From: Fimbriimonadaceae bacterium
Lineage (GTDB): Bacteria; Armatimonadota; Fimbriimonadia; Fimbriimonadales; Fimbriimonadaceae
NCBI GenBank assembly: GCA_026129685.1
Contig: JAHCHO010000002.1
Location: 1-64,000, forward strand
Length of the DNA: 64,000 nucleotides
Direction: 5' to 3'
Shown: one piece after another, positions 8,901 through 60,748 of the stretch
Layout of the letters: each line of letters opens with the position of its first letter
How positions within the stretch are numbered: the stretch's first letter is position 1
Position numbers and translations under genes: made by a program
Notes under the pieces: generated by a model
What the model was told of the DNA's origin: nothing
Seen by the model: only the letters and a program-made list of their open reading frames with translations
The model's database searches: none

Positions 8901-8919
8901 GTTTCCGGCGTGCGCCGGG
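8901..8919. repeat. Isolated partial type III-B CRISPR repeat
   Basis: The 19 bases GTTTCCGGCGTGCGCCGGG match the first 19 bases of the type III-B repeat variant found in repeats 9 and 10 of array 2 (24562 and 24631), 15 kb away. No leader, spacer or second repeat accompanies it. It may be the scar of an old array or recombination event, or a chance palindrome in G+C-rich DNA. Confidence 0.5.
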
Positions 8920-9019
8920 TCCTTCTGGTAAGGGATTCTGGCGGGCGCCGAGCTATGGGTGCACACTCGGCCACCCGGTGATCCCGGGGACGCGCCGGCG
9001 CCCGCGAACCGGCGACGGG

Positions 9020-9214: not shown

Positions 9215-9218
9215 GGGG

Positions 9219-9644: not shown

Positions 9645-10144
9645 GCGGGCACTCCGTGGCGTTTGCGGTCCCGGGCGATCACCTCGCGGGTCCAGAGTTC
9701 GGCGGGAGCCGGGTCCAGCCCCTCGAAGACCCGCGAGGCGCACTTGCCGTCCCATTCCCGGCGCACGAGGGCGCGGATCTGGGTGCGGGCGTGCCTCAGG
9801 ATTTGCGCGGAGTAGCCCCGTTCCTGGTAGTAGTCCAGCACGGGGGAGACGCGGAGGGGGACCCCGGTGCGGGCGCAGACGATGTGGGCGTTGTCGCGCG
9901 CGTCGGTGACGTCGCCCTCCCACAGGTTGCGGGTCACGATTTCGCGCCCGTTGGCGAGCCTCACGACGAACTCGCGGCCGCCGTGGCCGCGTTCGACGAA
10001 GCGAGCGCCGCAGCCGGTCGGCTCGGGCTCCACGGTGAACCAATGGCCTTGGTAGACGACCTCGACGTCCTGGACCAGGACGGTCGGCGCCGGCACGGGT
10101 CGCGGCGCGTTCGGAGGAGCGGGATCTCGGGTGAGTGCGTTCAT
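9641..10144 (-). CDS. Hypothetical phage-like protein
   Basis: A 167-residue protein, first gene of the leftward prophage operon. After a Pro-rich start it has a beta-rich part (VEVVYQGHWFTVEPEPTGCG and VVRLANGREIVTRNLW), then a helical C-terminus (DYYQERGYSAQILRHARTQI). No family is recognised. It starts 28 bp downstream of the -10 box of a good minus-strand promoter that overlaps a repressor half-site, so it is likely switched by the S24 repressor. Confidence 0.65.
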   Translation of the reverse strand: MNALTRDPAPPNAPRPVPAPTVLVQDVEVVYQGHWFTVEPEPTGCGARFVERGHGGREFVVRLANGREIVTRNLWEGDVTDARDNAHIVCARTGVPLRVSPVLDYYQERGYSAQILRHARTQIRALVRREWDGKCASRVFEGLDPAPAELWTREVIARDRKRHGVPA

Positions 10145-10171
10145 GGTCGGGCCCTCTCGCGGGGCGATCCA

Positions 10172-10211
10172 AGTGTATCACGCCGTGTCCCAATTGTCAA
10201 TAATGTGTCCC
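10172..10211 (-). promoter_or_regulatory. Leftward sigma70-type promoter with repressor half-sites
   Basis: On the minus strand there is TTGACA (10200-10195), a 17-base spacer, then TACACT (10177-10172), upstream of the gene at 9641-10144. The spacer contains GGGACAC, and AATGTGTCCC lies at 10202-10211. The latter is the exact reverse complement of GGGACACATT at 10944-10953 in the other promoter region, suggesting that one repressor controls both. Confidence 0.6.
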
Positions 10212-10236
10212 TAATTTGTCCTGACTCCGACCAGGA

Positions 10237-10908
10237 TCAGGGCCCGATGCCGCCGTCGTCCCACTCGATGGTTCCGCGCCCGCGACCGTAGTTGCGGAGG
10301 ACGGCGACGATGTAGCCCACGACGCAGCTCTCCTTGGGGACCACGCGATGCTCCTTGTTGACGGCCTGGAGGACGTGGTCGCCGTGTTTGTCGCGCAGGA
10401 GGGTTTTGACGGTCACCTCGCCGTCCTCGGTGCGCGCGACGACGATGCGTCCGGTCCGGGGCGAAGGGTCGAGTTCGACGACGACGAGGTCGCCGTCGTG
10501 GAGCCGGGGGGACATCGAGTCGCCCCTGATGGTCGCCACGACCCGTTCGGGGGAGCGCGGGGTGGTGCCGAGGAAGCTGGGAACCTCGATCCAGTCCTCG
10601 GCGCCTTGGGGCTCGTCCCAATCGCCGTTGGCGGGGAGGGCGGGCCAAAGGGGCAGGCGGATTTCGGGGAGATAGGCGGCGTTGCGGGGCGGTCCGAGCG
10701 GCTCGGGTTCCCGTTTGGGGAGCTTCGCGAGCATGGCGTCCCACACGGATTCGTCGCGGGGCGCGGAGGCCCCGCTGATCCAGTTGTGGACGGTCTGGCG
10801 GGAGACGCCGAGCTGGCGCCCGAGCCAGGCGAGCGACTTGTTGTGTTTGGCGAGCAGACGCTCGACGTCTTCGGCGCGCGGGTCGCGGACAGGCACGATC
10901 CTCATCAT
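10237..10908 (-). CDS. Phage-type repressor with HTH and S24 (LexA-like) peptidase domain
   Basis: This 223-residue protein resembles CI/C2-type lysogeny repressors. The N-terminus carries an HTH (AWLGRQLGVSRQTVHNWISG). The C-terminus is an S24 peptidase fold with the nucleophile region RGDSMSPRLHDGDLVVV and the catalytic Lys in VTVKTLLRD. No classical Ala-Gly cleavage site is obvious, so self-cleavage is uncertain. The start is the ATGATG pair at 10908/10905; the listed upstream ATG lies in the operator region. It is divergent from the rightward genes at 11.1 kb, with shared operators between. Confidence 0.88.
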   Translation of the reverse strand: MMRIVPVRDPRAEDVERLLAKHNKSLAWLGRQLGVSRQTVHNWISGASAPRDESVWDAMLAKLPKREPEPLGPPRNAAYLPEIRLPLWPALPANGDWDEPQGAEDWIEVPSFLGTTPRSPERVVATIRGDSMSPRLHDGDLVVVELDPSPRTGRIVVARTEDGEVTVKTLLRDKHGDHVLQAVNKEHRVVPKESCVVGYIVAVLRNYGRGRGTIEWDDGGIGP

Positions 10909-30340: not shown

Positions 30341-31517
30341 ATGGACGCCGTTTTGATCGTCTGTCCCGGCCTCCAGGACCCGGTTCACTTCCAACGGGGC
30401 GCCCGGCTCGAGGGGATGCCCGAGCCGAGGACCGACGCGTGGACGGCGTTCGTTCGGGAGCGGCTATCGGGCGAGCCGGGCGACGTCGCGGCACGGATGG
30501 CGGCGGCGCAGTTGGTTCCCGGACCGCACGTCACGGCTTTGCGCTCGTTTCGCTTCTTGGCGGACCCGACGCCGGAGGTTTACGCCGCGGTGTTCCCGGG
30601 ACGGCCGGTACCCGATCGCGAGGACTTCGAGGACGACGGAAGGACGCGCGCCGCCTCCACGCGGGTTCGATCGTCGAGGTATGGATGTTGCACGACGGCT
30701 CGGACCCGATGGCGGCGCGTTGCGCGCTCCTGCGCGAGTTCCTTCCAGCCTTGACGCCGTGGTTGACGGCAGGCGCCGTGCGGTCGATCGTCCTCGACAA
30801 CGCCTTCGAGGGGGGTGGAAGCCTACGAAAACGAGCCGGACGCGCCCTGCCCTTGGATCGCTCGGGGCGATCGTCCGATCCACACCTTCTATCCGCGCCA
30901 CGCCGAGGCTTGCCTACGGGTGATTCCGGGCGCCTTCCGGGCGCCCGCGCCCGAGTTGCGCGGACGTCGGCCAGTGTTTTTGCTCGGGCCGGGGACGCCC
31001 CAGATGAACCTGGGGTTTCTCGACGCGGGGCGGGAAGCAGAGGTTCGCGCGGCGGAGGACGAGACGCCGGGCGCACCGCCGGCGGTGTTCCAGGTGATCG
31101 GGCCGGAAGACAATCCAAAGGTGATCCACCACTTGGCGCGGGTTCGGCCCTGGGTGATCGAGCGGTTGCGCCCGGAGACGCCGAAGGTCGAGGTCCAGCG
31201 GACCAAGGACTTGAGCCAGCAACTCGAGAAGGCGATCGAACGCCGCTTGAGCGAGGCGAGGCGCCTCCAACTCGAGTTCGCGAACCGTCCTCGGGAGGGC
31301 GCGGGCGACTTGCACGACGGTCGAACAGTGGGGGGCGCGGCGGGCCGCCGCACCGGCGACCCGACCCGTCGAGCTCTGGCGGCAACTCCCCGACTCCGAG
31401 CAACAGGCGATCCTAGGGCAGGCGATCGGCTTATGCGACAACAACGTGGCGATCGGCCGGCTGCTCGGAGTCGGGGAGTCCACGGTTCGGACCTGGCGCA
31501 GGGCGCTCCGGCGTTAG
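30341..31517 (+). pseudogene. Frameshifted CARF-like/HTH gene (paralogue of 59567-60748)
   Basis: Translation in successive frames rebuilds a homologue of the intact protein at 59567-60748: MDAVLIVCPGLQDPVHF to about 30640, then WMLHDGSDPMAARCALLREF, then from a six-G run near 30808-30815 YENEPDAPCPW to LLGPGTPQMNLGFLDAGR, and finally from about 31300 the C-terminal HTH (NNVAIGRLLGVGESTVRTWR) to the TAG at 31515. Three frame changes are needed, one in a homopolymer. It is a recent pseudogene or contains sequencing errors. It lies between array 3 and a CARF gene. Confidence 0.85.
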
Positions 31518-31630: not shown

Positions 31631-32773
31631 ATGGGAACGGTGATCAGCCTCGTCGGCAACCAGGACCCCTACAATCGGGAGGGGAGGTTCGGCCCGATCT
31701 TGGCGGCGCTTCACGAGGAGTCCGCGTTTGCGGACCAGGCGGTGTTGCTGGTCGCGGTGGACAATCCGGGCGAGACGACGTTGTCCGAGCTTGCCGAGAA
31801 GACCGGCCGAATTCTGGCGATCCGCGAAGGACCGCCTAGGTGGGACGTGGTGAGGCTCGTGGGTCGGCCCGACCGTCGCGAGGACGCGTTCGCGCTGTTG
31901 CTCGGGCAGTTGCTACCCCGGTTGCTCGCTGCGGAGGAGCCGTTGCACTTCATCACGTCGTCGGGAACGCCAGCGTTGCGCGAGGCGATGCACGAGTGCT
32001 GGCTCACGCTCCGGGCGCGCAAGCGGAGTCGCGTGTGGCGGCGGCCGGGTGGCGGGCCGGTACAGGAGGAGGACAGTCTCCATCTGGCCCGGCACGCCGA
32101 CCTGCAGGCGGCGATCGCGCTGATCCGGCGATGCCAATGGGAGCCGGCGCGACAGATCCTGCTCGAACTGGGTTACGGTGCCAACCTCGGGCACCGGTTC
32201 GAAGCGGTTCACGCGGTGTTGTGGTCGCTCTCGTCGCTCGAAAGCGGACGATGGCGGGAGGCCGGACTTCCGAACGGCCTCCCGGACTTCGGCCAAAGCG
32301 GATGGGTGGCCATGGCCAGAGGGGTCAGGGGTCCGTTCCCGGCAGCCTATCGGTTGCGGATGGGGGTCCAGTTGGCTTTCGCCCGGCACCACGCGGTTTC
32401 GGGGCGGAACTACGGTTTTTTGTTGCGCCAGGCGATGGAAAACGCGGTGCGCTCCGTGACGCTGGCCCATGCCCGCACTTTCGACTTCGGGATCCTCCTC
32501 GATGGGGTTCCCGGTCTCTTGCCCGATCTCAGGGATTCCATCGTCGGGTTGAAGACCACCCTGAACCGCTGGGTGCACGACCAGTATGCGCCTCAGGGCG
32601 CGGCGCTCGACGAGTCGGCGATCGTGGTGATCGCCCAACTCCTAGACACGCCGGAGGCCGAGTTGCGCGCTCACCCCTTGATGCCGGAAAACATGACGGA
32701 GTTGTCGGCTCGTCTCCAGCTCGCGGTTTTGGAGGCGATGTACGGAGGGGCGCGCGCGGGACGGGGTCGCTGA
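31631..32773 (+). CDS. CARF-domain protein (type III CRISPR accessory)
   Basis: A 380-residue protein. The N-terminal ~170 residues form a Rossmann-like CARF domain: VISLVGNQDPYNREGRFGPI, VLLVAVDNPGET, and the ligand-loop motif HFITSSGTPALREAMHECW. CARF domains bind cyclic oligoadenylates made by Cas10. The C-terminal part is helical and could be HEPN-like; RSVTLAH fits the R-x4-6-H RNase pattern. It is a close paralogue of 51090-52217 (shared FPAAY and GVQLAFA stretches). The ATG at 31631 is set by the conserved start; the frame is open further upstream through the preceding pseudogene. Confidence 0.83.
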   Translation: MGTVISLVGNQDPYNREGRFGPILAALHEESAFADQAVLLVAVDNPGETTLSELAEKTGRILAIREGPPRWDVVRLVGRPDRREDAFALLLGQLLPRLLAAEEPLHFITSSGTPALREAMHECWLTLRARKRSRVWRRPGGGPVQEEDSLHLARHADLQAAIALIRRCQWEPARQILLELGYGANLGHRFEAVHAVLWSLSSLESGRWREAGLPNGLPDFGQSGWVAMARGVRGPFPAAYRLRMGVQLAFARHHAVSGRNYGFLLRQAMENAVRSVTLAHARTFDFGILLDGVPGLLPDLRDSIVGLKTTLNRWVHDQYAPQGAALDESAIVVIAQLLDTPEAELRAHPLMPENMTELSARLQLAVLEAMYGGARAGRGR

Positions 32774-32840: not shown

Positions 32841-33206
32841 TCAGTGCCGCGTGGGACCGTGGGAACGGCCGGCGAGGAAGGCTTGGACGACACCGGAGAC
32901 GCGGACTTCGAGGAAGCGAGGGTTTTCGAGGCACAGGCGATCCGGTTCGAGGTCGTAGACGCGGCGCATGACGATGGCGAGCGCGGCGCGGTCGGGTCCG
33001 GTCAGCCGGGCGAAGGGGGGGTAATCCTTTCGGCACGCCTTGAGGCGACCGCGAACGACGCCGGGGAAGAGGTTCTTGAGCATGAGGTCGGTGGCGAGGG
33101 CGACGTGTTGCCGGAAGATCCGGGCCACCCTCGTGTCATCGAGCCCGTTGGCCCGAAGGTCGGCGAAGGCGAGTTCGAAGCGGCTCACGATTTCGGCGTA
33201 ACGCAT
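32841..33206 (-). CDS. Small hypothetical protein, last gene of the vWA/AAA+ operon
   Basis: A 121-residue, mostly helical basic protein (MRYAEIVSRFELAFADLRAN, FRQHVALATDLMLKNLFPGV, LAIVMRRVYDLEPDRLCLEN). No family is recognised. It follows the DegT-like gene by 95 bp on the same strand and converges with the CARF gene ending at 32773. It may be a dedicated helper of the operon or an independent gene. Confidence 0.6.
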   Translation of the reverse strand: MRYAEIVSRFELAFADLRANGLDDTRVARIFRQHVALATDLMLKNLFPGVVRGRLKACRKDYPPFARLTGPDRAALAIVMRRVYDLEPDRLCLENPRFLEVRVSGVVQAFLAGRSHGPTRH

Positions 33207-33301
33207 GCGGGGGCACCCGCCGCCAGTAGACCGGGACGCGGGGACGGGCGGGCTCCTCGCAGGTTTCTGCGACCCCTCCTCCTTCTTGGGCGGGCGATCG
33301 G

Positions 33302-34414
33302 TCAGGGGCGGGATCCGATACAGGCGACGGCGTCGGGGAACCAGCGTTCGAGACGGCACGCGTTCTCGGCGACAGGGCAGGGAGGGGAGGTTCCCCAGCG
33401 GGCGAGGACGCCGGGGCGACGATGGAGGGGAACGCGGACGGGTCCGGGTCGCAGGTCGGGCAGAAGGACGGACGGGGATTCGCGCGGGTCCTCGGTTTGG
33501 ACGAGGAGGGCGCCCCAGGCGTGACCGGGATCGTTCCAGCCGGCGAGGGGGGCGACGGCGCCTTCCTCGAGGAGGGTCTGGCAGAGCCGGCGCAGCCGGT
33601 GGCTTCGCGCGGCGTGCCAAGCGGCCAGGCTCGGGACGGTGGCGAGGCCGATGACGGCGGCGAGGGGATGGATGCGGTAGGGCCAGAACGTTTCGTGGTT
33701 CGGGGCGGCGGCGGGGGTGCGCGCGTGGCGGGCGAAGCGGTGCGGGTGGCTTCCCGCGGCCATCGCGGCTTCCCAGACGGCACGGTCGTGGGTCACCAAC
33801 ATGCCGCCTTCGCCGCAGGGAAGGTGTTTGCGGGGGCCGAAGGAGAACGCGGCGGCGTCGCCGAAGGACCCGACCGGTCGGCCGGCGATCGTCGCGCCGA
33901 GGGCGGAGCAGGCGTCTTCGATGAGGAAGGCGGGGGCGGCGTCGGCGATCTCGCGGAGGGCGGGCATCGAAGCGGGGCGGCCGGCGACATGGATGGCGAC
34001 GATGGCGCGGGTGCGCGGGGTGACCCGTTCGGCGACGGAAGCGGGGTCGAGGCACCAGGACGCGTCCACGTCGGCGAAGACGGGAACGGCGTCGAGGGCG
34101 TCGAGGAACACGAGGATTTGCCCCCATCCATAGGCGGGGAGGATGACCTCGTCGCCGGGTCCGACGCCTCCGGCGAGGAGGGCCAGGTGGAGGGCGGCGG
34201 CGCCGCTGTTCGTGGCGAGGGCGAACCGCGCGTCGACGAGGTCGGCGAACCGGCTTTCGAACGCGTTGATGGGATCGTCGTCGGAGACGCCATCGAGGAC
34301 GCTCGTTCCGGTTAGGGGCGCGGACAAGGCGGCGAACACGGCCTCGGCGACCTCGGGCAGGTAGGGGGGCCAGGCTTGCCGCTCGGCGAACGGCGCGAGG
34401 GGGGAGGCGATCAT
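33302..34414 (-). CDS. DegT/DnrJ/EryC1-family PLP-dependent aminotransferase-like enzyme
   Basis: These fold-type I PLP enzymes usually transaminate nucleotide sugars. The 370-residue product has the family motifs: TNSGAAALHLAL (phosphate binding), ILPAYGWGQIL, IEDACSALGATIAG (Asp contacting the PLP ring) and FSFGPRKHLPCGEGG, in which Lys should bind PLP. It is complete, but no nucleotide-sugar pathway gene is nearby. Its ATG overlaps the AAA+ stop by four bases, so it is co-translated with the ATPase, a very odd partner. Substrate unknown. Confidence 0.85.
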   Translation of the reverse strand: MIASPLAPFAERQAWPPYLPEVAEAVFAALSAPLTGTSVLDGVSDDDPINAFESRFADLVDARFALATNSGAAALHLALLAGGVGPGDEVILPAYGWGQILVFLDALDAVPVFADVDASWCLDPASVAERVTPRTRAIVAIHVAGRPASMPALREIADAAPAFLIEDACSALGATIAGRPVGSFGDAAAFSFGPRKHLPCGEGGMLVTHDRAVWEAAMAAGSHPHRFARHARTPAAAPNHETFWPYRIHPLAAVIGLATVPSLAAWHAARSHRLRRLCQTLLEEGAVAPLAGWNDPGHAWGALLVQTEDPRESPSVLLPDLRPGPVRVPLHRRPGVLARWGTSPPCPVAENACRLERWFPDAVACIGSRP

Positions 34415-36249
34415 CGGGACACGCCCCGGAGGGAGGAGAGTTCGGCGATGCGTCGGTTGAGTTCGGCGACGTCGAGGCGTCCGTGGTCGTCGAGGAGGCG
34501 GCGGACGTGCGGCGGGCAGTCGGGGGTGTCGAGTCCTCGTTCGGGGTCGTACCAGGGGATCCCGGGCAGGAAAGGGACGGCGCGCAGGCCGACGAGGTCG
34601 AAGAACTCGTGGAGTTGCTCGTCGCGGTTCGGCTTGTACTGGGCGATGGCCTCGGCCAAGTCCGATTCGTCGAGAGGGGCGTTCTCGGCGGCAGCGGCGC
34701 GATCGGCGATCTCGCCGGCGCGGGCGAGAATCTTCTCGAGGTCGGCTCCCGAAGCGCCTTCGGTGGCGGCGGCGGCGGCGGCCAGGTTGGTCCCTTCGGC
34801 GAAACTTCGGCCATCGCGTTGGGCGAGGGTGTCGAGGATGCGGGCACGGTCGGCGGTTCCGGGCGTGGAGACGAGGTAGACCTTTTGGCACCGGCGAAGG
34901 AGGGCGGCATCGATGAGGTCGCCTCGGTTGCTGGCCATCACGAAGAGGGCTTTGCCGCGCAGGCGTTCGTCGCCAAGGGCGGCGAGGATTTTGCCAAGGA
35001 CGCGTTTGGAGGTTCCGGAGTCGCCGGTGGGCTCCCCGCGCGCGACGAAGGTGGTGTCGACCTCGTCCATGAACACGATGACGGGGGCCATTCCCTCGAC
35101 GACGCGGAGGACGCTGTCCATGCGTCGTTCGGACTCGCCGACGTAGCTGCCCATGACCTCGCCGAAGGCGACGACGTTGACGCCGCCGGCTTCGGCGGCG
35201 AGGGCGCGGGCGAGGCTCGACTTCCCGGTTCCCGGGGGGCCGACGAGGAGGAGGGCGCGGGGGAGGTTGCCGCTGGCGGGGTTTTCGCGGAACAGGCGGG
35301 CGATTTCGCGCAGGTCGGGGGCGACGTGATCGATCCCGGCGAGGCTTTCGAATCCTCCTTTGAGGGGGTCCATGAGGGTGAGGCCGCCGTCGGCGAGTTC
35401 GGCGATGACGGACGCCTTGGCTTGGCGAACCTGATCGAGGTTCACGGCGCGCCCGTTCACGCCGGCGTTCCGGAAGATGGCCTCGATATCGGTCAGGCGC
35501 AATCCGGCGGCGACGTTGGCGAACGAGGACGGCTCGACGCCATGGGCCAACGACCCGAACGCGGGGTTCGAGGCGGCGACGGCTTCGAGGCGGGCGAGGA
35601 AGTCGGCGATGGCGGCGCGGTCGGGGAGGGGGTGGTCGAGGGGGGCGTAGGCCTTGCGAACCACTTCGCTGACCTTCCCGGCGCTTCGGGTGAGTCCGAC
35701 GGCGAGGTTTTCGGTGGCGCGCATGGCGGCGGAGCTGCCCCAGCCTTCGACGATTTCCTCGAGTTGGACGATCTCGAGGGGTTGCACGCCCGCCACGCCG
35801 GGTTGGGGGGTGATGCGGTCGAGATTGTGGAGCACGACGGCGACCTTGGTACCGGACTGGCGGAGGAGGCGATCAAGGCCGCGAAGGGACTCCTCGACGG
35901 TCGGGAGCGATCGGGGGTCGCGGTTCGCGTCGTCGGCGTCGTCCACTCCCAGGCGGAGTCCGGACAGTTGGCGGACCCGGGCGTGCCGACGTTCGAGCTC
36001 GCGGCGATCGGTCACGTCGGTATGAAGCTCGGCCCCCCGAGAGAGGGAGTAGGTGAGCACGAGTTCGAACCCGCGTTTGAGGAGCAGGTCGGGCACGTAG
36101 GCTTCGATGGGGCTGACGCCGTCGACGTCGAGGCACAGGTCGTTGGCGTGCTCGAGGAGGAACGCGCTGCGGCGGGCGTGGTAGAGGCCGAAGAGGACGG
36201 GGACGAACCCCGGTTCGGTGGTGATCGCGGTGGTCAGGTTCGTGTTCAT
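34411..36249 (-). CDS. Ycf46-like AAA+ ATPase
   Basis: A 612-residue protein. The C-terminal half is a classical AAA+ module: Walker A VGPPGTGKSS (337-344), the pore-like segment GSYVGESERRMDSVL, Walker B VIVFMDEVDTTF (D395/E396), sensor 1 VMASNRG and a second region with ALLRRCQKVYLV. The N-terminal half has a degenerate ATPase look (VAVVLHNLDRITP in the Walker B place), as in Ycf46 proteins. It probably remodels a partner from the same operon. It lies between a helical protein gene and the DegT-like gene. Confidence 0.87.
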   Translation of the reverse strand: MNTNLTTAITTEPGFVPVLFGLYHARRSAFLLEHANDLCLDVDGVSPIEAYVPDLLLKRGFELVLTYSLSRGAELHTDVTDRRELERRHARVRQLSGLRLGVDDADDANRDPRSLPTVEESLRGLDRLLRQSGTKVAVVLHNLDRITPQPGVAGVQPLEIVQLEEIVEGWGSSAAMRATENLAVGLTRSAGKVSEVVRKAYAPLDHPLPDRAAIADFLARLEAVAASNPAFGSLAHGVEPSSFANVAAGLRLTDIEAIFRNAGVNGRAVNLDQVRQAKASVIAELADGGLTLMDPLKGGFESLAGIDHVAPDLREIARLFRENPASGNLPRALLLVGPPGTGKSSLARALAAEAGGVNVVAFGEVMGSYVGESERRMDSVLRVVEGMAPVIVFMDEVDTTFVARGEPTGDSGTSKRVLGKILAALGDERLRGKALFVMASNRGDLIDAALLRRCQKVYLVSTPGTADRARILDTLAQRDGRSFAEGTNLAAAAAATEGASGADLEKILARAGEIADRAAAAENAPLDESDLAEAIAQYKPNRDEQLHEFFDLVGLRAVPFLPGIPWYDPERGLDTPDCPPHVRRLLDDHGRLDVAELNRRIAELSSLRGVSR

Positions 36250-36258
36250 GGGGGTTCT

Positions 36259-37497
36259 CTAGCGGAAGAGGCGGGACCAGGCGGCGGCGACGGAGGCGGG
36301 GGGGGCGGTGGACGACCCGGAAGCGGACTTGGCGGCATGGTCGAGGGCTTTGGCGGCGCTGAGGCGTCGGCGTCCGGTACCGGCGAGGGCGGCGCCGGCT
36401 TGGGGGCCGTTTCCGCCGCCGACGTACCGTCGTTCTTCGAGTTCGAAGCGGGCGCGGGTGCGCTCGGCGAACGTCCGGAGGAACCGGTTGACCTCCACCG
36501 AGCACGCGGCCCCGGCGAAGGCGCCGTGCGCGGAGTCGAGGTCGAAGCGAGCCTGCTCGTCGAAGCCCACGACGATGGCGCGCCGACCGGAGCGGGAAGC
36601 CTCGACGACGCGGCGGTTCGCGACGAGTCGCTCTTGGCAGGCGTAGCCCATCGCGCGGAGGGTGGCGGCGGCTTCGCGGGCGAGGGCGTCGCGCTGTTCA
36701 CAGGCGACGGCGCGGCGGGCGTCGTCGAGGAGGTCGGTCAGGGAGCGGGCGACGCGGGAGCCGTCCTCGGCCACGGTGACGAAGTCGCCCTCGAGGTAAG
36801 CCGCGCGGAGGCGGCGCAGTTCGTCGGCGACGGGATCGCGGCGATGCGCGGCGTGGCGGTCGACCCACGCCCCGGCGCCGTCCGCGTGGACGGCCTCCCA
36901 GAGGGCGGCGGCGCGGGCGAGGGCGTCGGCGGCGGCGCGCGCTTGAACCGCCTCGCGAGCGAGGGCCTCGGCGTTGGCGCGTTCGAGTTCGACGGCGGCT
37001 TGTCCCGCGCGGTGGGCGGCTTGCTCCAACTCGGCCAGGTCGGCCCGGTCGATGAGTCGGTCAGCGGCGACCAAGGCCTCCCGGGCGGCGGCGAGGGTCG
37101 GGTTGGCGACGCGGAGGGACTCGGCGCGGGCGACGGCCATGGTGGCGCGGGCGAGCGCCTCGTGGGACCGGCGGACATCGGCGGGGGCGGCGCGGAGGAC
37201 GAGGGTGGCGTCGATCCGGCGCGCGAGGGCGGGGGGGTTGGGGAGGTTGAGGGCGCGCCCAAGGGAGCGCGCGCGGTCGTCCACCCGAATCCGGGCCAGG
37301 CGCAGGGTCGGGTTGGTGGCAGGCGCCAGGGTAAGGGAGGGGGCGACGAGGCTCGTCAAGTCGCGCACGGCGAAACGGTAGGCGTCGCGAAGCACGGCGT
37401 CGAGGCGCTGGTCGGCGATACGGGGCAGGGGGCCGGCGAACGCGAGGTCGCACAGTCCTTCGACGGCGTTGACGATTCCGTAGGCGATTTCGCTCAC
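36259..37497 (-). CDS. Helical protein of unknown function (vWA/AAA+ operon)
   Basis: A 412-residue Ala/Arg-rich protein with long helices likely to form coiled coils (ADLAELEQAAHRAGQAAVEL, REAVQARAAADALARAAALW). The C-terminal ~150 residues hold a compact alpha/beta domain (TLRAMGYACQERLVANRRVV, GRRAIVVGFDEQARFDLDSA) of the kind seen in uncharacterised substrates or adaptors of AAA+ systems. No signal or membrane segment. The GTG at 37497 overlaps the preceding stop (GTGA); the much longer upstream open frame is antisense-type shadow. Confidence 0.65.
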   Translation of the reverse strand: MSEIAYGIVNAVEGLCDLAFAGPLPRIADQRLDAVLRDAYRFAVRDLTSLVAPSLTLAPATNPTLRLARIRVDDRARSLGRALNLPNPPALARRIDATLVLRAAPADVRRSHEALARATMAVARAESLRVANPTLAAAREALVAADRLIDRADLAELEQAAHRAGQAAVELERANAEALAREAVQARAAADALARAAALWEAVHADGAGAWVDRHAAHRRDPVADELRRLRAAYLEGDFVTVAEDGSRVARSLTDLLDDARRAVACEQRDALAREAAATLRAMGYACQERLVANRRVVEASRSGRRAIVVGFDEQARFDLDSAHGAFAGAACSVEVNRFLRTFAERTRARFELEERRYVGGGNGPQAGAALAGTGRRRLSAAKALDHAAKSASGSSTAPPASVAAAWSRLFR

Positions 37498-38588
37498 TGG
37501 GGGCCTCCGAAGTCCACGCCGCCGGGATCGCGGCGATTGGGTTGGTCCAAGGGGTTGAGGGCGGAGTTGCGGCGCAGGCCGCGAATCTCGTCTTCGGCGG
37601 CTTCGCGGGCCGCCCGTTGGCGCTCGACTTCGTCCAGGAGTTCTTGGACGTGGGACGGGTCGGGATCGGCGATCGACGCGGCGGCTGCCCGGGGGGACTC
37701 GGCGAGGACTTCGTCCACGCGGGGGTGCGCCGAGGTCTCTTGGAGGTTGGCGGGGACGCGTCCGTTCGTGGCGGCGAGGTTGGGGTTCGGGGCCGGTTCG
37801 GGATCGAGTTCTCGGCTCGGGTTCGGAGCGGGGATGCGGGGAGTCGGCCGGTTCGGCCGTTCGGTCGACGCGGGGGTGGGGGCCGGGTCGCTCGTCGCCC
37901 CGGGTTCGTCGTCCGCGAGAAGGTTGTGGTAGACAAGGTTGGCCCGGGTGGCTCCCCAGGCGACGAACGCGATGAGAAGCGGCCAGAGCAGGTAGAGGGT
38001 CCCGAGGAGCCAGGAGCCGCCCACGATGGCACCGACGTCGGCCACGCCGACGATGTCGTGGAGGAGTCGGTCGGTTCGCGGGCTGCCGACCAGTTCGGCG
38101 GTGCGCAGAGCGAGGACGACCGCCTCCCAGCGGTACATGAAGGCGCCATAGAGGCCACCGATGGCAAGGAGGCCGAGCGCGTGGGGGACGAACACGCGAG
38201 CGAGGCGGAACCCGCCGTCGGCCAGGCTTTGGGCCACGAAGATCCCCGCGTAGGCGAGGGCGTGGGAGAGGGCGCAGGTCACGAGGACGTAAGCGGCGGC
38301 CATCAGGTCCGAGATGGCGAGGTCGCTCTGCGCGAAGAGGGGGCCGAGCATGGTCGAGTCGGCGACGGGCTCGGGGGGGAACCAGTTCAGGTACATGCTC
38401 GAGGAGAGCAGGTAGGCGACGACCATGACGGTCGCGTCGATGACGAACCACCAGGAAAGCGAGAGCCAGGCGGAGACGACGTCCAGCCCTTGCCGCCCGG
38501 CCCACCGCTTGGCGACGCCGAGCACGAGGGTGTGCAACAGGAACGCGATGCCGACGATGAGGATGACGCGCACAAATCCGGTGTCCAT
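37494..38588 (-). CDS. Polytopic membrane protein of the vWA/AAA+ operon
   Basis: A 364-residue protein with about six transmembrane helices in the first 240 residues (FVRVILIVGIAFLLHTLVLG, WWFVIDATVMVVAYLLSS, LMAAAYVLVTCALSHALAYA, and the pair around LGLLAIGGLYGAF and LLGTLYLLWPLLIAFVAW). A Pro-rich cytoplasmic linker and a short coiled coil (HVQELLDEVERQRAAREAAE) follow. No family is recognised. It starts one base after the vWA stop and overlaps the helical-protein gene, so it is probably the membrane anchor of the complex. Confidence 0.7.
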   Translation of the reverse strand: MDTGFVRVILIVGIAFLLHTLVLGVAKRWAGRQGLDVVSAWLSLSWWFVIDATVMVVAYLLSSSMYLNWFPPEPVADSTMLGPLFAQSDLAISDLMAAAYVLVTCALSHALAYAGIFVAQSLADGGFRLARVFVPHALGLLAIGGLYGAFMYRWEAVVLALRTAELVGSPRTDRLLHDIVGVADVGAIVGGSWLLGTLYLLWPLLIAFVAWGATRANLVYHNLLADDEPGATSDPAPTPASTERPNRPTPRIPAPNPSRELDPEPAPNPNLAATNGRVPANLQETSAHPRVDEVLAESPRAAAASIADPDPSHVQELLDEVERQRAAREAAEDEIRGLRRNSALNPLDQPNRRDPGGVDFGGPQ

Positions 38589-39404
38589 TTAGGCTTTCCC
38601 TCCGGGCCGCCCCGACCTCGGCCGCAGCACGAACAAGGTCGCGACGAGAAGGACGAGGGCGAGGGCCCCCCCGCCGAGGAGGAAGGGGTCGGTGCCGCCG
38701 CCTTCCGACGGGCGGCGGACGCGCTTGGGGGGATCGAGGCGACGGCCGGTGGCGCCGGACTCGATGCCGGTGACGACCTGGTCGAGGGCCATGAAGGCGG
38801 GGAGGGCGCGCAGTTTCGGGCGCACGGCTTCGGCGACCCAGACGGCGCGGACGGTCGCGCCTTGAAGGGTCGACCAGTCGAACGCGGAGAGGGGCCGGAA
38901 GCGCTCGATGAGACGGCCGTCGGGGGTCTTGGCGTCGTCGACCTGCATATCGGAGAAGAGGAGGAGGTGGTCGGCGTCGGCCCGGGGCGGGTTGGAGAGG
39001 TAGAAGGCGGCGAGTTCAAGGCTGCCGACGACATCGGTGCCGATCGAGCCGGCGGCGGCGCGGAAAGCCTGGGCGAACTCGGCTTGGGCCTCGCGTTTGG
39101 AGCGGACGCCCTGGATGTAGGCGATGGCGCGGGGTTTCGCGTCGCAGGCGAGGACGTAGACCTCGTCATAGGGGGACGTGGTGGCGACACGCCGCACGTA
39201 GTCCCAGGCGGCGTCGCGGGCGGCGCCGAGTCTGGCGACGAAGCTGCCGCTGCGATCGACGATCACGACGATGCGGTTGTGGGGACGGCCGGCGGCATTG
39301 GATTGAGCCAGGGCGGCCGCGCCAAGGACGAGCCACGCGGCGAGCCCGAGGAGGAGGCGGGCGGCGCGAGCGGTTCGATCGGAGGAGGGCGACACGGGGG
39401 CCAT
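38589..39404 (-). CDS. Exported von Willebrand factor A domain protein
   Basis: A 271-residue protein with an N-terminal signal/anchor (AARLLLGLAAWLVLGAAALA), a vWA domain with the metal-ion site D-x-S-x-S (VDRSGS, residues 50-54), the later GTDVVGSLELAAF and LLLFSDMQVDD, and a C-terminal transmembrane helix (LLGGGALALVLLVATLFVL). vWA proteins often act as adaptors for AAA+ ATPases, binding partners through the metal site. It heads the operon, 123 bp after the RT gene on the same strand. The ATG at 39404 gives a good signal sequence; 39434 is possible. Confidence 0.85.
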   Translation of the reverse strand: MAPVSPSSDRTARAARLLLGLAAWLVLGAAALAQSNAAGRPHNRIVVIVDRSGSFVARLGAARDAAWDYVRRVATTSPYDEVYVLACDAKPRAIAYIQGVRSKREAQAEFAQAFRAAAGSIGTDVVGSLELAAFYLSNPPRADADHLLLFSDMQVDDAKTPDGRLIERFRPLSAFDWSTLQGATVRAVWVAEAVRPKLRALPAFMALDQVVTGIESGATGRRLDPPKRVRRPSEGGGTDPFLLGGGALALVLLVATLFVLRPRSGRPGGKA

Positions 39405-39527
39405 GTCGCCATTGAAGCACCCCTTTGCCGGCACCGCCTTGATCGCAAGGGATTGCGAGCGGGCTCCGGGTCGATCTCGAAACCGAGCGTCGGCTCAGGC
39501 GCGCGACGACCGGGCCGATCCCTTCGA

Positions 39528-40412
39528 TCATACCACGAATCCGCGCCCAAGGGGGGCTTTTGCCCGCTTGGCCGGGGCAATGGAGGGGACGGGGCGGAGG
39601 GAGTCGAGTCGGGCCCCGAGCCAGACGAGGCCGGGTTCGAGGGCGGCGACGCGGGTCTTCTCCGGCGAGCGTTGCAGACCGCCGCGCCGCAGCGCGGCGT
39701 CGAGGGCGGCCTCGGCCTCGAGGGCCTCTCCGCACGAGGCGAGGCCGATCAGAAGGTCGTCGGCGTAGCGGACATAGCCGGCGAACCGGTTCCCGAGTTG
39801 GCGGTCCAGGTCGTCCAGGGCGACGTTGGCGAGGAGAGGGCTGAGGGGCGCCCCGACCGGAAGCCCGGGGATGCGCTCGACCACGCCGTTGCGGACGCCG
39901 CACCGGAGGATCAGGGCCTGCACCAGATCGCGAAGGTCGGGCGGGACGCCGAAGCGATCCAGGTTTCGGCGGACGGTGCGCCAAGGGAGGGAGGGGAAGC
40001 AGTTCCGCACGTCGGCGCGCAGGACGAACCGGGCGCGGCGAAAGCCCCGTAGCCGTTCGATGGCGGCAGTTACGCCGCGGCCGGGACGGTAGGCGCAGGA
40101 GGCGGGGTGCAACCGGGGGTCGACGAGGGGCTGGAGTCGCTCGAGGGCCATGCGTTGGACGAGACGGTCGCGGACGGTGGCGATGGCGATCGTGCGCCGC
40201 TTGCGGCCCCCGATTTCGAGGAGGCGGTAGGGGCGGGGACGGTAGGCGCGGTCGGCGAAGGCGCAGTGCAGGTTCGCCAACTGGGCTTCCAGCCGTTCCT
40301 CGAACCAGGCAAGGGAGCAGCGGTCCAGACCGGGCGTCCGGCCGGCCCGACGCACTCTGCGCCAGGCCCGGCGCCACTCGAGGTCGGTGGGGGGCGGGTT
40401 CAGAGGACCCAT
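39528..40412 (-). CDS. CRISPR-associated reverse transcriptase (stand-alone, group II intron type)
   Basis: A 294-residue RT with the group II intron-like motifs in order: TIAIATVRDRLVQRMALERL, CAYRPGRGVTAAIERL, FVLRADVRNCFPSL, the PVGAPLSPLLANVALDDLD segment and the YADD active site (216-219). It has neither a maturase/X nor an endonuclease domain, and no Cas1 or Cas6 fusion. RTs of this kind help some type III systems take up spacers from RNA. It overlaps cas2 by 13 bases and forms an adaptation pair with it; cas1 is in the divergent operon. Confidence 0.93.
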   Translation of the reverse strand: MGPLNPPPTDLEWRRAWRRVRRAGRTPGLDRCSLAWFEERLEAQLANLHCAFADRAYRPRPYRLLEIGGRKRRTIAIATVRDRLVQRMALERLQPLVDPRLHPASCAYRPGRGVTAAIERLRGFRRARFVLRADVRNCFPSLPWRTVRRNLDRFGVPPDLRDLVQALILRCGVRNGVVERIPGLPVGAPLSPLLANVALDDLDRQLGNRFAGYVRYADDLLIGLASCGEALEAEAALDAALRRGGLQRSPEKTRVAALEPGLVWLGARLDSLRPVPSIAPAKRAKAPLGRGFVV

Positions 40413-40663
40413 TCGCGGCACGGTTCGTCGGCGGTTCGCCCCATCGCGAGGATGGGATCTTGCGGGAGGCGCTCGATACGGAGGCGGTCCACGGCGGGGT
40501 CGACGAAGCCGACGGCGCGATGGAGCAGGGCGCGCAGACGCCGGGCGTCCACATGGCAGAGGAACACGCTGAACTGGACGCGGTCGCCGAAGGCGGCGAG
40601 GGCGCGGGCCAGGCGCTCGCGCTTGCGGTCGTCGGCGATGTCGTAGGCGACGAGGACGCGCAT
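40400..40663 (-). CDS. cas2: CRISPR-associated endonuclease Cas2 (type III-B locus)
   Basis: An 87-residue Cas2 beginning MRVLVAYDIADDRKRERLAR with the conserved Asp, then RVQFSVFLCHVDARRLRALL. Normal length. It is the first gene of the leftward operon cas2-RT-vWA and onward, divergent from cmr1 across a ~100-bp gap. It is not closely related to the type I-C Cas2 at 366-674. Confidence 0.94.
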   Translation of the reverse strand: MRVLVAYDIADDRKRERLARALAAFGDRVQFSVFLCHVDARRLRALLHRAVGFVDPAVDRLRIERLPQDPILAMGRTADEPCREWVL

Positions 40664-47519: not shown

Positions 47520-48491
47520 GTGTCGGATCTGTACGTCGTGGAGCCGGGGGCGCTCGTGCGGTCGGAGGGGGGGCGCGTGTTCGTCGGCGTCCGCACGCGG
47601 ACGCTGGCGGAGTATCCGATCGAGACGATCGAGGCGCTCTTCCTGCTGACGGGGGTCGGCCTGACGCGCGGGGCGGTGGAGGCGTTCGCGGAGCGCCGCA
47701 TCCCGGTGCTGTTCGTCACACGTCCGGGCCGGCTCGTGGCGCACCTGGCGTACCCGCTGGACCGTCACCTCGAGGGGCGACTCGGCCAATTGAGGGCGTT
47801 CCACGATCCGGAGCTTCGGCTCGCGTTCGCGCACGCCTTGGCGGGGCAGAAGCGGTCCTCGCAGCGGCTCGCGCTCGGCAGCTACCGGAAGCGGGGCGAG
47901 CTCGAGGCACCGCCCTCGTGGCGGGACCGGGTCGGCGCGGGCGACTTCGATCGGTTGCGCGGTTACGAGGGGGCGGCGACGGTACGCTACCTCCGGGCAT
48001 GGCGGACGCTGGTTCCGCCCGAGTGGGCGAGCGACCGTCGCACCCGCCATCCGCCCGCCGACCCGCTCAACGCGCTGCTGAGTTTTGGGTACACGCTGGC
48101 GTCGGGGGCGGTGGCGGCGTGCGTGGCGCGGGAGGGTCTCGATCCCTGGCTCGGGATGTTGCACGCGCCGCACCACTCGATGGAGGCGCTCGTGCAGGAC
48201 TTGGTGGAGCCTTTTCGGGCGGCGTTGGTGGATCCGTGGGTGCTTCGCCTCGTTCGGGCGGGAGTCGTGCGCCCGGAGGACTTCGAGGGGTCGGAAGCGG
48301 GGCCCTACCTGGCGGACACGAAGGCGCTGCGGGCGGTGGTGCGAAGCTACGTGGACGCGCTCGCACGGCCGACGGTGGGTTGGACCTGGCGCGACGCGCC
48401 GACGGCGCGGGACGCACTGCGGCTCTGGACGCGCTCGGTTCGGGAGGCGTTCGCGGCGGACGATCCCAACCGTTTGTCGGCGGGCGTCTAG
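47520..48491 (+). CDS. cas1: CRISPR-associated integrase Cas1 (type III-B locus)
   Basis: A 323-residue Cas1 with LYVVEPGALVRSEGGRVFVG at the start, RRIPVLFVTRPGRLVAHL, the helical core PLNALLSFGYTLASGAVAAC and the metal-site region GLDPWLGMLHAPHHSMEALV followed by LVEPFR. It closes the cmr operon, 4 bp after cmr6, with a GTG start. Together with cas2 and RT of the divergent operon it makes an adaptation module split across two strands. Not closely similar to the type I-C Cas1. Confidence 0.95.
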   Translation: MSDLYVVEPGALVRSEGGRVFVGVRTRTLAEYPIETIEALFLLTGVGLTRGAVEAFAERRIPVLFVTRPGRLVAHLAYPLDRHLEGRLGQLRAFHDPELRLAFAHALAGQKRSSQRLALGSYRKRGELEAPPSWRDRVGAGDFDRLRGYEGAATVRYLRAWRTLVPPEWASDRRTRHPPADPLNALLSFGYTLASGAVAACVAREGLDPWLGMLHAPHHSMEALVQDLVEPFRAALVDPWVLRLVRAGVVRPEDFEGSEAGPYLADTKALRAVVRSYVDALARPTVGWTWRDAPTARDALRLWTRSVREAFAADDPNRLSAGV

Positions 48492-51089: not shown

Positions 51090-52217
51090 ATGGGATGCGT
51101 CGTCAGTCTGGTGGGCGGTCAAGACCCGCTCAACCGCCATGAGGCGGACGGCCCGATTTTGTCCGCGCTCGCCGAAGAGAGGGCTTTCGACGGTTGCGAC
51201 CTGTTGCTCGTCTCGGTGGACAACCCGGGGGCGACGGATTTCAAGGAACGGGCGGTCGCGGTGGGTAAGACTCTGGTCGCTCGGGGCTGGCACACGGATC
51301 GGATTTGGGTCGCGCCGCTCGAGGGTCGCCCGGACCGACGCGAGGACGCGTTCGGGTTGATGTTGGGGGGTCTCATGCCCGTCCTTCGGGAGGCGTCCGC
51401 GCCCTTGCACTTCCTCACGTCGTCGGGGACGCCCGCCTTGCGGGAAGCGATGCACGAGTGTTGGCGCACGCTCCGGGATCGGATGGACTGCCGCGTCTGG
51501 CGGCGTCCCGAGGGCGGGCCGGTCCAAGAGGACGACATCGGCCACCTGGAGACCCACGCCGACGTCCAAGCGGGCATCGAGATGATTCGGCGGTCCCAAT
51601 GGGGGGTGGCCAGCCAGATTCTGAGGGGGTTGAGGAAGAGGACGGGCCAGACGGTGGGGGCGAGCCTCGTCCCGGTCGTCCAGGTGCTGGACGCTCTCGG
51701 CGCGCTGGAGAGTGGACGCTGGAACGAGGTGGTCGCTCTGCCGGCGATACCGGATTTCGGGCAGAGCCGTTGGGGTTCCATCGCCGAAGGCGCGAGGGGG
51801 ACTTTTCCGGCAGCCTACGGGTGCCGGCTCGGGGTTCAACTCGCGTTCGCGATTCACTTTTGGCAGGGGGGCCGCAACCCGGCCCCTCTGCTCCGCCAGG
51901 CGTTGGAGAATGCGGCGAGGTTTCGGACGACCGCCGTTCGAAAGCGCGCCCCCTTCAACGAACTGCTGGACGGAATCCCGGGGTTCGATCAGCCGAGCAA
52001 AAACAGGCTGTTCGCGACCAAGAGCACCTTGGATTCGTGGTTGCACGACGAGCCCGAGGGGGGTCGTCCTCTCGAGGTCCTATGGGTTGTGGAGACCATC
52101 GCGCGTTTCGCCCGGTTGGGCGATGTTTGGGGCCATCCGTTGATGCCCAGGAATCTGGCCGACCTCTCGGTCAACCTGCAGCACGCGGTGCTGAGCGCCC
52201 TCTATCCACCGCGGTAG
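51090..52217 (+). CDS. CARF-domain protein (type III CRISPR accessory), paralogue of 31631-32773
   Basis: A 375-residue protein with the same plan as 31631-32773: CARF domain (VVSLVGGQDPLNRHEADGPI, DLLLVSVDNPGAT, LHFLTSSGTPALREAMHECW), then a helical C-terminus (GTFPAAYGCRLGVQLAFAIH, LLRQALENAARF). Where the paralogue has RSVTLAH, this one has no His at a fitting distance, so RNase activity by a HEPN site is doubtful. It lies 60 bp after the DHH-like gene, probably co-transcribed. Confidence 0.83.
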   Translation: MGCVVSLVGGQDPLNRHEADGPILSALAEERAFDGCDLLLVSVDNPGATDFKERAVAVGKTLVARGWHTDRIWVAPLEGRPDRREDAFGLMLGGLMPVLREASAPLHFLTSSGTPALREAMHECWRTLRDRMDCRVWRRPEGGPVQEDDIGHLETHADVQAGIEMIRRSQWGVASQILRGLRKRTGQTVGASLVPVVQVLDALGALESGRWNEVVALPAIPDFGQSRWGSIAEGARGTFPAAYGCRLGVQLAFAIHFWQGGRNPAPLLRQALENAARFRTTAVRKRAPFNELLDGIPGFDQPSKNRLFATKSTLDSWLHDEPEGGRPLEVLWVVETIARFARLGDVWGHPLMPRNLADLSVNLQHAVLSALYPPR

Positions 52218-59566: not shown

Positions 59567-60748
59567 CTAGACCTTCAGCGCGCCTCGCCAGTTCCGGATG
59601 GTCGGTTCAGGAAAGCCGAGCAACCTGCCGGCCGCGACGTTGCTGGGCGTTGTTTGCAGAGCCTGCGCCAGAACCGCCCGCCGTTCCTCTTCCGACAGGG
59701 CCTGCCAGAGGCTCACGCGTTCTCTTCTGGTGGACTCACCGGCGCGAAGAAGCCACGCCTCGACGGTCGTGCAGTTGGCCGCGCCTTGGTCGACCAGGGT
59801 TTGTTGCAGCCGCTGAAGCCGACGGGTCTCCACTTGGAGTCGCTCGATCTGAAGGCGCAGTTCGACTTCGAGCGATTTCGCGGCGTCGAGTTCCTCGTAG
59901 AGGGTTTCGGGACGCAAGTTACGGATCACCCTCGGCTCGACCCGGGTCAGGTAGTGGACGGCTCCCGGGTTGTCGCCCGGCTCGATCACCTGGGCGAGGA
60001 GCGGATAGCCGTTCGTATCCGGCACGCCGCTCAGCGCATCGTGCTCGGCCTGGCGCGCGGCGTCGAGCAGGCCCATGTTCATTTGGGGGGTGCCGGGGCC
60101 GAGGAGCAAGAAGGGTCGGCGATAATCCAGGGCAGGCTTCAGGACGTCGCGGAAGGCGCCCGGGATCACCCGAAGGCAGTCGTGCGCCCGATGCGGGAGG
60201 AGGGGGCGATGTCCGGTCGATCCGGGCGGAACGACCCACGCGGGGTCGTCGTCGGGGCCACGCCGATCGATCGGATTCGCGAGGGCCATGTCCACCACGG
60301 AGTCCGGGTCGAGCCAGGGGGCGAGGGCGGGGAGGAGGCGTCGGACGAAGTCGCACCGGGCGACCATTCCTTCCGAGCCGTCGTGCAGCAGCCAGACCGC
60401 TTCGACGCGCCCTGGCTCGGTCGCGAAGAAGTCGGCCGCATCGTCGGCGAGGTCGTCCGAGGTCACCGTTCCGGCCCGAGGATGATGGGGGAACATGGCC
60501 GCGAAAGTCGCCAGGGTGGGGTCCTCGAGGAGGCGGAGGGAGCGGAGGGCGGTGAAGAGGGGGCCCGGCTCGAGTCGCTCGGCGGCCATGCCTTCCCATG
60601 GTTCGGGGTGGCGGTCGAGACTCCGTTGGACGAACGCGGTCCAATCGGCGGTGGCGGGCGCGGGCAGATTGTCGGGCCGGTAGTTCTTGGGGTACCGGAC
60701 GGGGTCTTGATGGCCCGGGCACGCGATCAGGACGGCGGGGACAGGCAT
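59567..60748 (-). CDS. CARF-like protein with C-terminal HTH
   Basis: A 393-residue protein. The N-terminal ~270 residues look Rossmann/CARF-like (PAVLIACPGHQDPVRYPKNY, AVWLLHDGSEGMVARCDFV, and the loop LLLGPGTPQMNMGLLDAARQ, compare SSGTPAL in CARF proteins). A coiled coil (ELRLQIERLQVETRRLQRLQ) leads to a C-terminal HTH (PSNVAAGRLLGFPEPTIRNW). This is a plausible ligand-sensing transcription factor, analogous in layout to Csa3 but not clearly the same family. A frameshifted paralogue lies at 30341-31517. It lies just left of array 4. Confidence 0.72.
   Translation of the reverse strand: MPVPAVLIACPGHQDPVRYPKNYRPDNLPAPATADWTAFVQRSLDRHPEPWEGMAAERLEPGPLFTALRSLRLLEDPTLATFAAMFPHHPRAGTVTSDDLADDAADFFATEPGRVEAVWLLHDGSEGMVARCDFVRRLLPALAPWLDPDSVVDMALANPIDRRGPDDDPAWVVPPGSTGHRPLLPHRAHDCLRVIPGAFRDVLKPALDYRRPFLLLGPGTPQMNMGLLDAARQAEHDALSGVPDTNGYPLLAQVIEPGDNPGAVHYLTRVEPRVIRNLRPETLYEELDAAKSLEVELRLQIERLQVETRRLQRLQQTLVDQGAANCTTVEAWLLRAGESTRRERVSLWQALSEEERRAVLAQALQTTPSNVAAGRLLGFPEPTIRNWRGALKV

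What the first reader, a model, noticed from the sequence alone, without database searches (positions are those of the whole stretch)
32841..40663. Undescribed vWA / membrane / AAA+ / PLP-enzyme operon continuous with CRISPR cas2-RT
Directly after cas2-RT and on the same strand come an exported vWA protein, a six-helix membrane protein, a helical protein, a Ycf46-like AAA+ ATPase, a DegT-family PLP enzyme and a small protein. From vWA to DegT the genes abut, overlap or lie within about 10 bp of each other, so they are made as a unit. vWA plus AAA+ modules are known from conflict systems and from MoxR-type maturation, but an aminotransferase-like member and linkage to RT-CRISPR adaptation genes are, to my knowledge, not described. 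It could be a membrane-tethered effector that acts when CRISPR signalling fails, or an unrelated envelope-modifying machine that landed here.
Basis: partly seen in the sequence, partly recalled or inferred. Interest (0 to 1): 0.82.

Follow-up and report, generated by a model that had tools for sequence, protein, structure and literature searches.

The report
Membrane AAA+ operon parked beside CRISPR
Five co-inherited genes (a surface-facing sensor-like protein, a membrane protein, a helical adaptor, an ATP-driven protein-remodelling motor and a vitamin-B6 enzyme) form a rare, undescribed bacterial system that probably serves in conflicts with viruses or plasmids and merely neighbours a CRISPR locus here.

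Summary
The operon is real. On the minus strand vWA, membrane protein, helical protein, AAA+ and DegT abut or overlap (gaps 0, -4, 9, -4 bp); cas2-RT lies 123 bp upstream with no recognisable terminator or sigma-70 promoter between. Profile searches of 291 genomes of the phylum found the same five genes, same order, in two other families (AAA 57% and 39% identical). A variant in a fourth family keeps vWA, membrane protein and DegT, but replaces the AAA+ and helical protein by a split Clp-type AAA pair plus a ubiquitin-like/E2 fusion, JAB-E1 and an ART-like protein. The DegT is an operon-bound subfamily (645-674 bits; next best 298). CRISPR linkage is not conserved: none of the other three contigs carries cas1. 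More consistent partners are a HerA/TrwB-type ATPase and a Replic_Relax or nuclease-like protein downstream (two of four loci) and defence-island surroundings. Most likely: a membrane-anchored AAA+ remodelling complex with an external vWA module, working in biological conflict, thematically akin to vWA-AAA+ 'ternary' systems but lacking their MoxR component. The CRISPR-effector reading is not supported. Function rests on inference; nothing biochemical was tested.

The parts
38589..39404 (-). vWA protein: signal-peptide-like N-terminus, vWA domain with MIDAS-type residues, C-terminal transmembrane helix; predicted outside the cytoplasmic membrane
   Evidence: PF13519 E=0.003; hydrophobic segments 14-32 and 242-260; alignment with G062/G067 homologues keeps DRSGS/DRSRS/DRTGS, GTD and D. 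An upstream GTG at 39434 is possible but not conserved.
37494..38588 (-). membrane protein, about 5 TM segments, disordered charged tail ending in a cytosolic-looking helix
   Evidence: homologues only in G062, G249 and G067 among 291 genomes, apart from two weak partial hits
36259..37497 (-). helical protein with C-terminal DUF2997-like (possibly DUF1257-DUF2997-like) alpha/beta domain
   Evidence: AlphaFold model, mean pLDDT 71.5; hhalign to DUF2997 score 27.9 vs 14.8 for the best of the column-shuffled controls; homologues only in G062 and G249 (its 5 further hits are weak, E>=0.001)
34411..36249 (-). AAA+ ATPase of the Cdc48/Vps4/Ycf46-like class with about 300-residue N-terminal region; Walker A GPPGTGKS and Walker B-type FMDEVD present
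   Evidence: PF00004 E=2e-25; full-length orthologues in G062 and G249; own well-supported clade
33302..34414 (-). DegT-family PLP enzyme, operon-specific subfamily, catalytic lysine motif GPRKHLPCGEGG intact
   Evidence: PF01041 E=9e-64; 645-674 bits for the three operon copies vs 298 for the next DegT in the phylum
32841..33206 (-). 121-aa protein of unknown family, 95 bp after DegT; not found in the other operons
   Evidence: coding signal by codon score; no Pfam or NCBIfam match; no homologue in loci compared
39528..40412 (-). stand-alone reverse transcriptase of the CRISPR adaptation type (neighbour, not part of the conserved unit)
   Evidence: PF00078 E=1e-27; PADLOC RT and Cas1_IIIb(RT) models
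40400..40663 (-). cas2 (neighbour, not part of the conserved unit)
   Evidence: PF09827 E=1e-16

Best explanation
The five genes vWA-mem-hel-AAA-DegT encode one membrane-anchored AAA+ remodelling machine. Shown: the genes are co-inherited as a unit with congruent divergence; the vWA protein has export and anchoring signals; the membrane protein is polytopic; the AAA+ has intact nucleotide-binding motifs; the DegT keeps its PLP lysine and is bound to this operon type. Inferred: the vWA module outside senses or binds a ligand or protein; the membrane protein carries this to its cytosolic tail; the helical/DUF2997-like adaptor couples the tail to the AAA+ hexamer, which assembles, disassembles or unfolds target complexes at the membrane; the PLP enzyme makes or modifies a small-molecule or protein group needed for signalling or effect. 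The system works in biological conflict (against phage or plasmids, or for the element carrying it): it is rare and scattered, lies in defence-type islands, is followed in two loci by a HerA/TrwB-type ATPase with a Replic_Relax or nuclease-like domain, and has a variant carrying a bacterial ubiquitin-like conjugation set. In this window it is a neighbour, not a component, of type III CRISPR-Cas.
For: Same gene order in G062 and G249; AAA, hel and DegT identities all rank G062 closer than G249 (57/39, 37/21, 48/42%; mem 31/28-29). Rarity: 3 of 291 genomes with the full set. Variant locus G067: vWA, mem, ART-like protein, Clp-type AAA pair, UBL+Prok-E2_E, JAB-like+ThiF-E1, DegT. HerA/TrwB 6 bp after DegT and Replic_Relax in G062; 84-aa and 164-aa genes then a HerA/FtsK-like ATPase in G249. 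HerA-Replic_Relax pairs elsewhere lie beside recombinase-like and ArdC-like genes, recognised by eye. G062 island: Mrr_cat, nSTAND3 (sub-threshold), DUF7380/DUF4209. AAA resembles defence AAA models IetA and TRIP13 in PADLOC, though only generically. Literature: vWA plus AAA+ conflict systems, one class with a Ubl-E2/E1/JAB set and private alpha-helical proteins (PMC7159879).
Against: No effector domain (nuclease, protease, toxin) in the window's five genes. No experiment. Only three full operons, all in one phylum. In the window the HerA-Replic_Relax pair is absent from the operon; a distantly related HerA lies about 18 kb away on the other strand. G067's context beyond its own operon shows no clear defence genes, its DegT is interrupted by frame changes and the genome is 7% contaminated.
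Confidence: 0.5

Rival explanations
1. The unit is part of the transfer or maintenance apparatus of an integrative element: vWA and membrane protein form an envelope channel, the AAA+ and HerA/TrwB ATPases handle DNA and Replic_Relax processes it.
For: In G062 the operon runs straight into HerA/TrwB and Replic_Relax (gaps 6 and -11 bp); HerA-Replic_Relax pairs in three other genomes (G002, G019, G161) are followed by another vWA lipoprotein and a membrane protein.
Against: HerA-type genes occur in 47 genomes but the mem gene in only four; most HerA loci examined have no vWA/mem unit; the window's operon has no adjacent HerA or Replic_Relax (no Replic_Relax in G000); DegT and DUF2997-like proteins have no known transfer role.
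Confidence: 0.2
2. An envelope-modifying machine: DegT makes an amino-sugar or related group and the vWA/AAA+/membrane complex installs it, as MoxR-vWA pairs mature other complexes.
For: DegT belongs to the sugar-aminotransferase family with an intact PLP lysine; vWA and membrane protein are at the envelope.
Against: No nucleotide-sugar dehydratase, glycosyltransferase or flippase in the operons; sporadic presence in 4 of 291 genomes; defence-island or mobile surroundings in G000 and G062; the DegT is far from the phylum's other DegT enzymes.
Confidence: 0.15
3. A CRISPR type III accessory or fallback effector coupled to cas2-RT.
For: Same strand, 123 bp after RT, no terminator or sigma-70 promoter match between them; inside a locus with RAMP/Cmr genes, cas1 and several arrays. 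vWA genes near CRISPR loci are reported (PMC10910872).
Against: None of the other three loci is linked to cas1; no nucleotide-sensing CARF/SAVED match in the five genes; G249's contig is only 9 kb, so it is a weak negative.
Confidence: 0.06
4. A membrane-stress repair system like the PspA/IM30-linked AAA+ ATPases of the same phylum.
For: The next-closest AAA+ group (about 30% identical) includes seven loci directly beside PspA/IM30-type genes.
Against: No PspA-like gene in the operons; the operon AAA+ form a separate clade; rarity and island context.
Confidence: 0.09

Closest known systems
MoxR-vWA 'FtsH ternary' conflict systems (Kaur et al. 2020, PMC7159879)
   Same: vWA plus AAA+ ATPase, private alpha-helical proteins, and in a subset a UBL-E2 fusion, E1 and JAB as in the G067 variant
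   Different: no MoxR gene, no two-domain FtsH protein, no EAD or caspase effector in the operons; instead a Cdc48/Ycf46-like AAA+, a polytopic membrane protein and a DegT PLP enzyme
Ycf46-like AAA+ with DUF1257/DUF2997 genes (seen in this phylum; ycf35-DUF2997 cluster in cyanobacteria, PMC4284462)
   Same: AAA+ of the same broad class beside a DUF2997-type domain
   Different: there the DUF1257 and DUF2997 proteins are small and separate, with no vWA, membrane protein or DegT; here a DUF2997-like domain is fused to a long helical protein
HerA/TrwB plus Replic_Relax modules of integrative elements
   Same: directly downstream of DegT in G062; HerA-like gene downstream in G249
   Different: widespread without the five-gene unit; absent next to the operon in the window
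DegT/DnrJ/EryC1/StrS aminotransferases (ArnB, perosamine synthetase and others)
   Same: fold and PLP-lysine motif; about 130 bits to the best solved structures
   Different: divergent C-terminal part and substrate motifs; operon-bound subfamily with no sugar pathway genes nearby
vWA-containing CRISPR-linked gene sets (Altae-Tran et al. 2023, PMC10910872)
   Same: vWA genes near CRISPR loci
   Different: described with MoxR-VMAP, kinase, phosphatase, transmembrane or tubulin partners; the main text has no DegT, and linkage of this unit to CRISPR is not conserved

Membership tests
MoxR-vWA ternary conflict systems | vWA domain protein | tested here: met
   weak PF13519 match (E=0.003 window, 6e-6 G067) plus MIDAS-type residues
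MoxR-vWA ternary conflict systems | MoxR-type AAA+ ATPase | tested here: not met
   AAA is best matched by PF00004 (90 bits) and CDC48/FtsH-type models; bpMoxR 19.5 bits, below its cut-off of 27
MoxR-vWA ternary conflict systems | third component (VMAP, iSTAND or two-domain FtsH) | tested here: not met
   no Pfam match for hel or mem and no such gene in the full operons
MoxR-vWA ternary conflict systems | Ubl-E2, E1, JAB set (subset of FtsH systems) | tested here: inconclusive
   present only in the G067 variant; absent from the window operon, and no Prok-E2_E found in G000
Type III CRISPR accessory module | conserved linkage to cas genes | tested here: not met
   cas1 on the operon's contig in 1 of 4 genomes
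Type III CRISPR accessory module | sensor for cyclic oligoadenylate (CARF/SAVED) | tested here: inconclusive
   no Pfam match in the five genes, but Pfam also missed the CARF-like neighbours
Ycf46-like AAA+ | single C-terminal AAA domain with homologous N-terminal region | tested here: inconclusive
   about 30% identical homologues align over residues 59-555; canonical-looking Ycf46 proteins form a distant branch of the same tree. No Ycf46 profile was available, so the name rests partly on recall
DegT/DnrJ/EryC1/StrS family | PF01041 and PLP-binding lysine | tested here: met
   E=9e-64; GPRKHLPCGEGG conserved
DegT/DnrJ/EryC1/StrS family | aminotransferase activity on a nucleotide sugar | not testable with these tools
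   needs enzymology
HerA-Replic_Relax mobile module | adjacent HerA/TrwB ATPase and Replic_Relax | tested here: not met
   met in G062, HerA-like plus nuclease-like in G249, not in the window; no Replic_Relax in G000

The most novel reading that the evidence does not exclude
A previously unrecognised class of membrane-spanning AAA+ immune machine in which an external vWA module controls a cytosolic Cdc48/Ycf46-like unfoldase and a dedicated PLP enzyme supplies a signal or modification; the AAA+ part can be exchanged for a Clp-type pair with a ubiquitin-like conjugation cascade.
Probability: 0.25. Interest if true: 0.85.

Novelty: new variant of a known kind. Interest (0 to 1): 0.58.

Why it matters
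A conserved core (vWA, membrane protein, DegT) that swaps a Cdc48-like motor for a Clp pair with E1/E2/ubiquitin-like genes would link membrane sensing, protein remodelling and PLP chemistry in one bacterial conflict system. PLP enzymes of the DegT type are not described in such systems in the papers read here. It also separates a real unit from a coincidental CRISPR neighbour, which matters for guilt-by-association searches.

Tried and rejected
CRISPR coupling: rejected as the main reading because cas1 is not linked in the other three loci. Relatives beyond the phylum: one genome-contig scan with the window AAA gave only generic archaeal AAA+ hits; plasmid tblastn with AAA, mem, hel and the G067 vWA gave nothing; viral contigs gave generic AAA+ hits but no vWA or membrane homologue; phage hits were partial AAA+ domains. 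Foldseek on the hel and mem models gave no match at E<=0.001, and VIA-align rows for hel were within the range of chance helical matches; this does not show new folds. Nine E2 loci elsewhere in the phylum were inspected: no vWA/DegT unit beside them. The next-best DegT genes lie in other, metabolic-looking contexts. DUF1257 alone did not match hel convincingly (3% probability). Papers with both DegT and vWA in such systems were not found (DegT count 0 in PMC7159879 and PMC10910872).

Full report
OBSERVATION. The finding is correct in its facts. On the minus strand, reading downstream, lie cas2 (40400-40663), a stand-alone RT (39528-40412), vWA (38589-39404), a membrane protein (37494-38588), a helical protein (36259-37497), an AAA+ ATPase (34411-36249), a DegT-family enzyme (33302-34414) and a 121-aa protein (32841-33206). 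From vWA to DegT the gaps are 0, -4, 9 and -4 bp; RT to vWA is 123 bp and DegT to the small gene 95 bp. No sigma-70 promoter match or intrinsic terminator was found between RT and vWA, so co-transcription is neither shown nor excluded.

DOMAINS. Pfam gives DegT_DnrJ_EryC1 (E=9e-64), AAA (E=2e-25), a sub-threshold VWA_2 (E=0.003), RVT_1 and CRISPR_Cas2; nothing for hel, mem or the small protein. PADLOC gives only generic AAA hits (IetA, TRIP13) for the ATPase. The vWA has a hydrophobic N-terminus, a C-terminal TM helix and MIDAS-type residues conserved in the G062 and G067 homologues. The membrane protein has about five hydrophobic segments and a disordered charged tail that ends in a helix. 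The helical protein is a helical array with a beta-beta-beta-beta-alpha-beta C-terminus. Profile comparison matches that C-terminus to DUF2997 (score 27.9; best of the column-shuffled controls 14.8; HHalign probability 52%, single-pair E=1.5e-4) with the end of DUF1257 in register before it; this is probable, not certain.

RELATIVES. The genome's phylum (unnamed here) has 291 genomes held. AAA orthologues over the full length occur in G062 (57% identity) and G249 (39%); the rest are about 30% or less over long alignments. Both loci carry the whole unit vWA-mem-hel-AAA-DegT in the same order. In G249 the first gene is cut by the contig end and is vWA-like by eye only, with no Pfam match and altered MIDAS residues. 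The hel profile finds only these three genomes clearly; the mem profile finds them plus G067; the DegT profile separates the three operon copies (645-674 bits) from all other DegT genes (298 bits and below). Identities for AAA, hel and DegT all place G062 nearer than G249, and the AAA tree makes the three a supported clade. This is what co-inheritance of one unit predicts.

A VARIANT. G067:C18 (L172) has vWA, mem, a 180-aa TM protein with an ART-like stretch (E=0.006, below Pfam's cut-off), two Clp-type AAA proteins, a UBL plus Prok-E2_E fusion and a protein with JAB-like motif, ThiF/E1 and part of a DegT. The DegT part is 65% identical to G062's over one stretch but changes frame in this 7%-contaminated genome, so it may be a fusion, a decayed gene or an assembly error. 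Taken at face value the conserved core is vWA+mem+DegT with an exchangeable AAA+ part.

NEIGHBOURS. In G062 the operon continues into a TrwB/HerA-type ATPase (6 bp) and a Replic_Relax protein; in G249 it is followed by 84-aa and 164-aa genes and a HerA/FtsK-like ATPase whose C-terminal half looks like a wHTH plus nuclease domain by eye. HerA-type genes of this sort occur in 47 of 291 genomes. In the 19 HerA loci examined most sit with Replic_Relax and, by eye, recombinases and ArdC-like genes, and two of these plus G002 carry a different vWA lipoprotein and membrane protein after Replic_Relax. G062's operon is flanked by Mrr_cat, nSTAND3-like and DUF7380/DUF4209 genes. The window itself holds RAMP and cas1 genes, arrays with a shared leader-like repeat, UvrD-like helicases, a PP2C and a HerA-like gene.

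CRISPR LINK. Cas1 searches in the four carriers put cas1 on the operon's contig only in G000; G062 (185-kb contig), G067 (36 kb) and G249 (9 kb, weak) have cas1 elsewhere. The CRISPR association is therefore most likely local clustering of defence genes.

MECHANISM. Shown: unit structure, export/membrane signals, intact AAA+ and PLP motifs, operon-bound DegT, rarity, island context. Inferred: external vWA module, signal through the membrane protein to a cytosolic helical/DUF2997-like adaptor, AAA+ remodelling of a target, PLP enzyme supplying a product or modification, conflict role. The nearest described theme is the vWA-AAA+ ternary systems, whose FtsH class includes a Ubl-E2/E1/JAB set and private alpha-helical proteins (PMC7159879). 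Membership is not claimed: the defining MoxR component was tested and not met.

LIMITS. Gene calls in loci were made with a simple script of my own; several neighbour identities (recombinases, ArdC, wHTH-nuclease, JAMM motif) are by eye. All relatives are from one phylum; the one scan of a wider genome set used a single sequence and short peptide patterns, so presence elsewhere is not excluded.

Noticed in passing
L046, L052, L055, L056, L057, L059, L061 (AAA neighbours): Seven of the about 30% identical AAA+ genes of the phylum lie directly beside a gene of one PspA/IM30-related cluster (Pfam confirmed in five), i.e. a Vps4/Ycf46-like ATPase next to a bacterial ESCRT-III homologue.
   Followed up: partly
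L212, L221, L224-L226, L217, L219: DUF2997 (often with DUF1257) genes sit near either a Ycf46-like AAA+ or a ClpB-like AAA+ with an FHA-like gene, a parallel to the AAA+ exchange seen in the operon.
   Followed up: partly
L162 (G062:C25) 2435-10810: cas1, cas2 and a stand-alone RT lie about 4 kb upstream of a HerA-Replic_Relax pair in the genome that carries the closest operon.
   Followed up: partly
L161 8540-10981, L180, L181: HerA-Replic_Relax followed by a vWA lipoprotein and a roughly 430-aa membrane protein in three genomes (with a small TM or zinc-ribbon protein between in two): a separate vWA-membrane set on putative mobile elements.
   Followed up: partly
window 31631-32773 and 51090-52217; 30347-31511 and 59567-60748: Two families of CARF-like genes are present twice (52% and 39% identical); the copy at 30347-31511 is interrupted and looks broken.
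   Followed up: partly
window 23796, 29736, 61144: A 245-nt sequence is repeated (78-93%) just upstream of three arrays with the same CRISPR repeat: shared leaders.
   Followed up: no
window 823-1692 and 47529-48341: Two different cas1 genes within the window, with a further repeat type at 19-211.
   Followed up: no
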